From Gemmatimonadota bacterium (GTDB lineage: Bacteria > Gemmatimonadota > Gemmatimonadetes > Gemmatimonadales > Gemmatimonadaceae): a stretch of 64,000 nucleotides of DNA. Position numbers and translations under genes: made by a program. Location of the stretch: assembly GCA_028287235.1 (NCBI GenBank), contig JAQBQB010000030.1, positions 248,001 to 312,000 on the forward strand, written 5' to 3'. The notes below the pieces were generated by a model. The model saw nothing but the letters and a program-made list of their open reading frames with translations, was not told where the DNA came from and made no database searches. This document shows positions 53,754 to 55,164 of the stretch, piece by piece; position 1 is the stretch's first letter, and the number at the start of each line of letters is the position of its first letter.

Positions 53754-54347
53754 ATGCAATGCATTCCTTCGATCGTGAGAGAGCGCGACGTCGCCTTCGA
53801 GCATGAGGCGATTCCTTGGATCGACGACGTCTATCGATTCGCCCTCTCCCTGACGCGCGACGAGTCCGACGCCGACGACGTGGTACAGGATACCTTCCTG
53901 CGCGCCTTTCGGTCCTGGCATACGTACATGCCTGGGAGCGACTGCCGCCGCTGGCTGTTCACGATTTGCCGCAACGTCTTCCTGCGCTCGCGCGAACGTT
54001 CGCGTCCCACGGTGGAGCTCGACGCGACCGACGTCGACGCCGTCTCGGCCGACTCGCTTTATTCGGCGGCGATGCACGAAGGGTTCGACGATCTGTTCGC
54101 ACGCCTCGATCTCGCGCCCGCCATCGCTCGCGCGCTGGCGAAGGTGCCCGAGCCGTTCCGCGCGACGCTCATCATCGTCGACGTCGACGACCAGTCGTAT
54201 GAAGCGGCCGCCGAGATGCTCAAAGTGCCCATCGGTACGGTGCGCTCGCGATTGTTCAGGGGGCGTCGCCTGATGCAGGAACAGCTGTTGACGTATGCGA
54301 GCGACGCCGGATTTGGGAGAAGGCCGTCGATGTTGGCCGCCAGCTGA
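53754..54347 (+). CDS. ECF-family RNA polymerase sigma factor
   Basis: A 197-residue sigma factor with region 2 (VYRFALSLTRDESDADDVVQDTFLRAFRSW, then RRWLFTICRNVFLRSRER) and region 4 (LAKVPEPFRATLIIVDVDDQSYEAAAEMLKVPIGTVRSRLFRGRRLM). It directs polymerase to stress or envelope promoters. No anti-sigma gene follows; the next 300 bases are a palindromic repeat. Control may be transcriptional, from the AT-rich region in front. Confidence 0.95.
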   Translation: MQCIPSIVRERDVAFEHEAIPWIDDVYRFALSLTRDESDADDVVQDTFLRAFRSWHTYMPGSDCRRWLFTICRNVFLRSRERSRPTVELDATDVDAVSADSLYSAAMHEGFDDLFARLDLAPAIARALAKVPEPFRATLIIVDVDDQSYEAAAEMLKVPIGTVRSRLFRGRRLMQEQLLTYASDAGFGRRPSMLAAS

Positions 54348-54370
54348 TCATTTCGCCAAGGCGAGCCGCT

Positions 54371-54645
54371 CTGTCGGGACGATTCCGTCGTTATCTCACG
54401 GATGACGCGGATGATGCGGAAAAGACCGGATCGCTCCATTCGCATTCAAATCTCCGAGCGCAACGAGCCCGGACGAACTTTTCTTTGGAACAGACGCTCG
54501 GGGCGCCATTGGTGGCGTCCTGAGCGTCTGTTCCCAAAAAAACACGGCTAGTTGCGGGATCGAATCTTGGATGCTCGCGGAGCGATTCTGCTTTTTCCGC
54601 CCGATCAGCGTGATCCGTGAACAAAACGACGGAATCGTCCTGTCG
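54371..54645. repeat. 275-bp imperfect palindrome with central hairpin
   Basis: Arms 54371-54445 and 54571-54645 are inverted copies, roughly three-quarters identical over 75 bases, sharing GGACGATTCCGTCGTT, CACGGAT, GCGGAAAA and TCGCTCC. At the centre, 54487-54499 pairs perfectly with 54522-54534 and continues with G-U pairs. It fills the gap between convergent genes. It resembles a repeat element or a fossil mobile element; there is no transposase and no T-tract of a terminator. Confidence 0.75.
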
Positions 54646-54657
54646 TATCGGCAAGAA

Positions 54658-55164
54658 TCAGGTGGAAGGTGTCCACACCTTCTGCCGCACCGCCGGAAAG
54701 CTCTCTCCATTCAGCGTCAACTTTGTTTCTGTGACGATGTCTGGCGCGAGCGACGTCGCCACCGAGCAGTATCGCTCGTACGACAGTTGAATGGCGCGCT
54801 CGGCATGCTCGCGCTCGATCCCGGCGCCGTCGATCCGGAACTCGATCTCCATCCGCTGCACGCGTCTCGGGAATTCCTCGCGGCGCTCGGCCACGACGTT
54901 GATCACCATGCGCTCCACGGGTGTCTTCCGCTTGGCGATGATGTCGATGACGTCCACGCCCGAGCAGGTCGCGACGGCGTTGAGCAGCGTCTCGACGGGA
55001 CCGGGCGCTTCCTTGGCGCTCGCGTCGATGCGATGCGTGCGGCCCACGGGGCCGGCGTCGAACAGACGCTCGCCGCGCCACACGACTTCCGTGCGGGTGA
55101 GGACGGGGCCGGGGGGCGCCGCCGCCGTCGGCGGAGTGAGAGTGGGTTCTACGGGTGATGACAT
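54658..55164 (-). CDS. OsmC-family peroxide-reducing protein
   Basis: A 168-residue OsmC/Ohr-type protein. The two conserved redox cysteines lie in NAVATCSGVDV and YERYCSV, with the Arg-rich and Glu-containing strands between. It reduces organic hydroperoxides using thiols. It is the last gene of a minus-strand run starting at 56929, 12 bases after a sulfurtransferase, which fits a sulfur/redox theme. Confidence 0.9.
   Translation of the reverse strand: MSSPVEPTLTPPTAAAPPGPVLTRTEVVWRGERLFDAGPVGRTHRIDASAKEAPGPVETLLNAVATCSGVDVIDIIAKRKTPVERMVINVVAERREEFPRRVQRMEIEFRIDGAGIEREHAERAIQLSYERYCSVATSLAPDIVTETKLTLNGESFPAVRQKVWTPST

What the first reader, a model, noticed from the sequence alone, without database searches (positions are those of the whole stretch)
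54371..54645. 275-bp imperfect palindrome between convergent genes
Two ~75-bp inverted arms with long identical blocks flank a separate perfect 13-bp hairpin, giving nested symmetry centred near 54509. There is no transposase. The arms contain CACGGAT and GCGGAAAA blocks that look like a dispersed intergenic repeat present twice in opposite orientation. It could be a MITE-like or REP-type element, or encode a structured RNA.
Basis: seen in the sequence. Interest (0 to 1): 0.65.

Follow-up and report, generated by a model that had tools for sequence, protein, structure and literature searches.

The report
Dispersed composite palindromes behind gene ends
The 290-base mirror-image sequence is one of roughly 35-45 copies of a repeat scattered through this soil bacterium's genome, nearly always directly behind the end of a gene, built from a shared centre and exchangeable arms, with no identifiable enzyme that moves it.

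Summary
The palindrome is real (about 54363-54655; fold z -10.3 as DNA, -10.8 as RNA) and is not unique. The host genome (Gemmatimonadota) holds roughly 35-45 full or partial relatives, about 75% identical, the full ones all palindromic. Of 33 copies whose neighbours I called, 16 lie between convergent genes, 16 between tandem genes and 1 between divergent genes, usually 3-50 bp behind a stop codon. The same ECF-sigma/OsmC gene pair in two species of the genus lacks the insert. The family is modular. A conserved core (CAACGAGCCCGGACGA, T-tract, CTTTGGAACAGACGCTC hairpin) is combined with different arm sets made of short tandem units (9 bp in this family, about 8-11 bp elsewhere), even within one genome, and core and arms also occur separately in other genera. 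Arms of one copy match each other hardly better than arms of different copies, so there is little covariation. No Y1 (RAYT/IS200-type) transposase is encoded, no target-site duplication is seen, no Rfam family matches, and the core's U/A tracts are in the wrong order for an intrinsic terminator. Best reading: a mobile, non-coding extragenic palindrome tolerated or used as a 3'-end structure between genes. Mobiliser and function are unproven.

The parts
54363..54655 (.). Whole composite palindrome (this copy)
   Evidence: Inverted repeats and fold; boundaries from alignment of own copies and end motif
54363..54393 (+). Left end motif GAGCCGCTCTGTCGGGACG and GATTCCGTCGTT outer stem
   Evidence: Conserved in own copies; pairs with 54620-54655
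54396..54424 (+). Left arm tandem units, 9-bp steps: CACGGATGA CGCGGATGA TGCGGAAAA
   Evidence: Lag-9 self-match over 41 own arms; sequence
54426..54437 (+). Left middle stem CCGGATCGCTCC
   Evidence: Conserved block
54458..54478 (+). Left inner stem GCGCAACGAGCCCGGACGAAC, the block shared with other species
   Evidence: Nearly invariant columns across two genera
54479..54542 (+). Central hairpin with U-tract before and A-tract behind the stem (perfect 13-bp part GGAACAGACGCTC/GAGCGTCTGTTCC)
   Evidence: Inverted repeat I1; fold
54545..54555 (-). Degenerate right inner stem of this copy (CGGCTAGTTGC for CGGGCTCGTTGC)
   Evidence: Alignment with own copies
54579..54597 (-). Right middle stem GGAGCGATTCTG followed by a T-run
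   Evidence: Alignment; weak terminator-like site
54603..54619 (-). Right arm tandem units (ATCCGTG / GATCAGCGTG), partly degenerate
   Evidence: Alignment
54620..54655 (-). Right outer stem AACAAAACGACGGAATCGTCC and right end
   Evidence: Inverted repeat I2; alignment
53754..54347 (+). ECF sigma-70 family gene, left convergent neighbour
   Evidence: Pfam Sigma70_r2 and r4_2
54658..55164 (-). OsmC-like gene, right convergent neighbour
   Evidence: Pfam OsmC

Best explanation
This is one copy of a dispersed, non-coding, mobile composite palindrome of about 290 bp. It consists of (i) end motif about YTYGACTGGCCGCTCTGTCGGGACG, (ii) outer arms made of short tandem units about one helical turn long (here 9 bp: CACGGATGA CGCGGATGA TGCGGAAAA), (iii) a middle stem CCGGATCGCTCC, (iv) an inner stem GCGCAACGAGCCCGGACGAA and (v) a central T-tract/A-tract hairpin. 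Copies insert, or survive, directly behind stop codons. Arms are exchanged between copies and replaced between species while the core stays. There the element most likely acts as a passive 3'-end barrier: a very stable hairpin in the mRNA of both neighbouring genes that separates their transcripts and shields their 3' ends. SHOWN: multi-copy, palindromic, biased to gene 3' ends, absent at the same site in relatives, modular, found as a core family in only two genera of the genomes searched. INFERRED: mobility (from empty sites and scattered positions), recombination of half-elements (from independent assortment of arm variants), 3'-end function (from position and stability only). UNKNOWN: the enzyme that moves it.
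For: Copies: 68 matches, both strands counted, in the own genome; full copies about 70-77% identical and self-complementary. Position: 16 convergent, 16 tandem, 1 divergent of 33 copies against 6/46/6 of 58 gene pairs in the window (Fisher p = 8e-5 for convergent). Empty sites: the ECF/OsmC pair has about 40-65 bp between the genes and no element in same-genus G002 and G004, with both own proteins full length; dnaB/radA in G002 and the L011 site in G002 and G005 are also empty. Modularity: the own genome has the same core with a second arm set (CAACAGCGTTAGCACGGACTGGACGGACACGG; L057, L060, L061, L064); G001, G003, G004, G005 and G024 have the core with yet other arms; the A arm without this core occurs in further genera (L112, L115, L116, L119). 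At the dnaB/radA site own and G001 carry the same core with different arms. Unit period: lag 9 matches 0.43 against 0.25 shuffled over 41 own arms. Arm variants, scored by eye on alignment A2, assort independently: 8 both, 3 left only, 5 right only, 6 neither, Fisher p 0.39.
Against: No transposase or other mobiliser was identified and no target-site duplication was found, so movement is inferred only. The core hairpin has U-tract 5' and A-tract 3', the reverse of an intrinsic terminator, and the consensus terminator scan finds only weak sites inside the element. Avoidance of gene starts and coding sequence could be purely selection against damage, without any function. There are no expression data. 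The gene calls behind the position statistic come from a home-made codon-usage caller, and the background is only the 58 gene pairs of this window.
Confidence: 0.55

Rival explanations
1. Ordinary MITE: a non-autonomous derivative of a DDE transposon whose terminal inverted repeats have come to fill the whole element; spread by a transposase now lost or elsewhere in the genome.
For: Dispersed symmetric element with conserved ends (GACTGGCC) and empty sites in relatives.
Against: No target-site duplication of 3-9 bp at any boundary offset in 25 copies; only one DDE_Tnp_1 gene in the genome and no sequence match of the element near it; exchange of arm sets around one core is not expected of a MITE. 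Other transposase families were not scanned.
Confidence: 0.2
2. REP/REPIN/BIME-like element moved by a RAYT (Y1 tyrosine transposase) acting on hairpins in single-stranded DNA.
For: Extragenic, palindromic, many copies, hairpins with conserved motifs, 3'-end bias as known for REPs.
Against: No Y1_Tnp (PF01797) match in a genome estimated 100% complete, while the same search rings in five of 14 control genomes; about 290 bp rather than 20-40 bp REP units (size definition from PMC3733652).
Confidence: 0.08
3. Structured RNA (cis-regulatory or small RNA) maintained for its fold.
For: Extremely stable fold; conserved blocks in the core across two genera.
Against: No Rfam family; within-copy arm identity 72.6% against 71.3% between copies; paired fraction exceeds arm-swapped controls by only 1 percentage point; both strands equivalent; arms replaceable.
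Confidence: 0.1
4. DNA-level site: arrays of one-turn units plus a palindromic core bind a host protein (nucleoid, recombination or cruciform-binding) and are spread by recombination rather than transposition.
For: Tandem units of 8-11 bp in the arms, different units in different species, a core block of 16 bp nearly invariant, arms assorting independently.
Against: No candidate protein; the 3'-end bias is not explained by DNA binding; units differ between arm sets of one genome.
Confidence: 0.15

Closest known systems
REP / BIME / REPIN elements (with RAYT)
   Same: Extragenic palindromic repeats in tens to hundreds of copies, mostly behind genes, able to form hairpins in RNA and DNA.
   Different: About 290 bp with nested layers instead of 20-40 bp units; no RAYT/Y1 gene in the genome; exchangeable arms around a fixed core.
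Bacterial MITEs and similar (Correia/NEMIS, RUP, ERIC/IRU)
   Same: Short non-coding dispersed elements with inverted symmetry; ERIC also forms one long hairpin in intergenic regions (from general knowledge).
   Different: No target-site duplication; no related transposon found; arm sets differ between species and even between copies of one genome.
Bidirectional intrinsic terminators between convergent genes
   Same: Position between two stop codons, GC-rich hairpin, A/T tracts.
   Different: Far longer; the central hairpin has its U-tract before and its A-tract behind the stem; dispersed homologous copies; absent from the same gene pair in relatives.

Membership tests
REP/REPIN | RAYT (Y1 tyrosine transposase) encoded in the genome | tested here: not met
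   PF01797: 0 matches in G000, control genomes positive
REP/REPIN | Short 20-40 bp palindromic unit | tested here: not met
   Unit is about 290 bp; size definition from the abstract of PMC3733652
REP/REPIN | GTAG- or CGTC-type tag at one end of the repeat | not tested
   The tag was not searched for
REP/REPIN | Extragenic, many copies, inverted symmetry | tested here: met
MITE | Target-site duplication | tested here: not met
   25 copies, k = 3-9, offsets -6 to +15 around the end motif: no excess except a 4-mer at offset -4 that is the GGCC self-palindrome; a 2-bp duplication would be missed
MITE | Terminal inverted repeats | tested here: met
   Ends read about GACTGGCC on both sides, but the symmetry runs through the whole element
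MITE | Related autonomous transposon | tested here: inconclusive
   One DDE_Tnp_1 gene, no element match near it; other transposase families not scanned
Structured RNA family | Match to a curated family | tested here: not met
   Rfam: only matches far below gathering scores, mostly miRNA models
Structured RNA family | Compensatory covariation | tested here: not met
   84.6% paired against 83.6% (sd 0.4) with arms swapped between copies: a small excess only
Intrinsic terminator | GC-rich stem followed directly by a U-tract | tested here: not met
   Core: U-tract 5', A-tract 3' on both strands; weak sites only in the scan. A middle stem followed by a T-run exists on the right arm (54579-54597)
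Mobile element | Presence/absence polymorphism at orthologous sites | tested here: met
   Empty sites in G002, G004 (ECF/OsmC), G002 (dnaB/radA) and G002, G005 (L011 site)

The most novel reading that the evidence does not exclude
A widespread, undescribed class of bacterial and phage repeats: long palindromes at gene 3' ends whose arms are arrays of interchangeable one-helical-turn units (CACGGATGA, CGCAGAGGA, CACAGAGGA, CGGACACGG and others) and whose centre is a separate exchangeable module, spread by a mechanism other than known transposases, with arm sets turning over in place between species.
Probability: 0.25. Interest if true: 0.8.

Novelty: new variant of a known kind. Interest (0 to 1): 0.5.

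Why it matters
Large palindromes are usually unstable in bacteria, yet this lineage keeps dozens directly behind its genes and carries them with different arms in different species. If arms and core are independent modules, these elements are natural experiments on how palindromes are made, moved and repaired, and on how closely packed genes separate their transcripts. I found no description in the open papers searched, though most subscription literature was not searchable.

Tried and rejected
Plasmid and phage record searches gave no match. Rfam miRNA matches are hairpin artefacts below gathering scores. RNAalifold of the cross-species core kept only the 10-bp CGAGCC-type stem because inner segments misalign, so the covariance model R1 is mostly a sequence model. 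A phylum search with R1 over 298 genomes found the core only in the own genus and in G024's genus, plus a doubtful tRNA-side hairpin in G074. A shared neighbour family beside several elements (L056 and relatives) looks, from reading its sequence, like a common MacB/FtsX-type permease. A first impression that in L047 the palindrome runs far into the flanks was my own comparison of one flank with itself. A coding role was considered because long ORFs cross the element on the minus strand; indels between copies make it unlikely. Counts of tandem units in viral contigs are not specific: CACAGAGGA 101 hits against 0 for a permuted CACGGATGA-type unit, but CACGAAGGA 12 against 10 for its permuted unit; many of those arrays appear to be read in frame as coding sequence, and only 15 of 95 have an inverted partner against 0 of 9 controls. 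Nearly no element sites are shared between own and relatives apart from dnaB/radA.

Full report
OBSERVATION. Window 54363-54655 holds a nested palindrome between the stop codon of an ECF sigma factor gene (53754-54347, +) and that of an OsmC-like gene (54658-55164, -). Two inverted repeats are found directly: 54365-54392/54625-54652 (28 nt, 82%) and 54479-54508/54513-54542 (30 nt, 87%). Folded as a single strand the region is far more stable than 100 dinucleotide shuffles (z -10.3 as DNA, -10.8 as RNA).

COPIES. The own genome (G000, 5.73 Mb, 31 contigs, estimated 100% complete) holds 68 BLAST matches counting both strands, and 69 matches of a core covariance model counting both strands, i.e. 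roughly 35-45 places. Aligned full copies are about 280-300 bp and about 70-77% identical. The full copies fold into one long hairpin. Some copies are truncated to one arm or part of one (L062, L063, L065; L076).

ANATOMY. From the outside in: end motif about YTYGACTGGCCGCTCTGTCGGGACG; GATTCCGTC; T-rich spacer; tandem units CACGGATGA CGCGGATGA (T/C)GCGGAAAA; CCGGATCGCTCC; a variable stretch; CTCC..GCGCAACGAGCCCGGACGAA; TTTTTCTTTGGAACAGACGCTCGGGA; loop; and the mirror image. In 41 own arms cut by fixed flanking motifs, matches at lag 9 are 0.43 against 0.25 in shuffles, the highest of all lags 3-18. In other arm sets, picked by eye, the best lag is mostly 8-11.

PLACE. For 33 copies flanking genes were called with a codon-usage model trained on the window: 16 convergent, 16 tandem, 1 divergent; usually 3-50 bp behind a stop codon. 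Background in the window: 6 convergent, 46 tandem, 6 divergent; Fisher p 8e-5 for convergent. In the L011 copy the sequence at the palindrome end reads TGACTGG, so the end motif can itself contain a stop codon.

EMPTY SITES AND REPLACEMENT. The ECF/OsmC pair is conserved in the genus. In G002 and G004 the two genes are convergent with about 40-65 bp between them and no element. In G002 dnaB and radA (named from reading their sequences) are about 10 bp apart, whereas the own genome has an A-arm element there, G001 an element with the same core but CGCAGAG-type arms, and G003 and G004 long palindromes with other arms and cores. At the L011 site G002 and G005 are empty, G001 has a decayed CAGAG-arm palindrome and G003 an unrelated CTGAGCG..GAAGG palindrome. 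Otherwise element sites are not shared between species. This fits insertion plus local replacement; a preferred target at some sites is not excluded.

MODULES. Within the own genome four copies (L057, L060, L061, L064) combine the core, or part of it, with another arm set (CAACAGCGTTAGCACGGACTGGACGGACACGGCACGG and similar). The core with further arm sets occurs in G001, G003, G004, G005, in G024 and G394 of another genus and in public Gemmatimonadota MAGs. Conversely the A arm occurs with other centres in other genera of the family (L112, L115, L116), and L119 mixes CGCAGAG and CGCGGATGA units in one element. Across 298 phylum genomes the core model is found only in the own genus and G024's genus, apart from one doubtful match.

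ARMS ARE EXCHANGEABLE. Left and right arm of one copy are 72.6% identical, left and right arms of different copies 71.3%. Pairing over 133 consensus pairs is 84.6%, against 83.6% (sd 0.4) when right arms are swapped between copies. The long/short variant of the tandem-unit stretch, which I scored by eye on alignment A2, occurs in all four left/right combinations (8, 3, 5, 6; Fisher p 0.39). So the hairpin is kept because each arm stays near a common sequence, not by compensatory change, and half-elements seem to recombine. With 22 copies this test has little power to exclude a weak association.

WHAT IT IS NOT. No Y1/RAYT gene; no target-site duplication; no Rfam family; no hit in plasmid or phage records. 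The central hairpin has its U-tract before and its A-tract behind the stem, the reverse of an intrinsic terminator. A T-run behind the middle stem on the right arm, and in a few copies (L008, L026, L047, L056, L065) a separate hairpin close to AAAATTCCCGGCTCGTTGGGCCGGGAATTTT formed within one arm, are closer to terminator form.

MECHANISM. Shown: dispersal, symmetry, position, empty sites, modularity. Inferred: a mobile extragenic palindrome tolerated only behind genes, acting there as a two-way transcript barrier and 3'-end shield. The mover is unknown. I give 0.55 to the whole statement, about 0.85 to 'dispersed mobile composite palindrome' and about 0.4 to the 3'-end role.

WIDER CLASS. Two IMG/VR contigs carry inverted arrays of the unit GACACGGAT with other centres between genes (L123, L124). 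Arrays of CACAGAGGA are frequent in viral contigs and sometimes palindromic, but controls are mixed and homology to the present arms is not shown. I therefore keep the general class as the novel case only.

Noticed in passing
L123:9960-10120 and L124 near 1950 (IMG/VR contigs): Inverted arrays of the 9-bp unit GACACGGAT / ATCCGTGTC between phage genes; in L123 they enclose a perfect hairpin AAAGTAAGGGCACATTGCAATGTGCCCTTACTTT.
   Followed up: partly
L130, L131, L133 and similar viral contigs: Arrays CACAGAGGACACAGAGG appear to be read in frame inside phage genes (Thr-Glu-Asp repeats), without an inverted partner.
   Followed up: no
L237 (G003), behind the orthologue of the L011 neighbour: A different palindrome, CCCTGAGCGTAGCGAAGG ... 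CCTTCGCTCCGCTCAGGATGACA, sits at the site where the own genome has the present element.
   Followed up: no
L010, L244, L246, L247 (dnaB/radA intergenic region): Four of the species compared carry long palindromes with different arms or cores at this one site; G002 (L245) has none.
   Followed up: partly
L101-L103 (G005, G003, G001), between ECF sigma and OsmC genes: A small cysteine-containing ORF resembling an anti-sigma factor appears to lie between the two genes; it is missing in the own genome, G002 and G004.
   Followed up: no
L050, left gene: The called N-terminus of the neighbouring protein (MFLLTDARDATSSVPSVGSKK...) is encoded by element sequence, so a copy may have supplied a gene start.
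   Followed up: no
L076:1-105 (G000 contig C1 start): A contig end made of CCCCACG tandem repeats next to a truncated right arm of the element.
   Followed up: no
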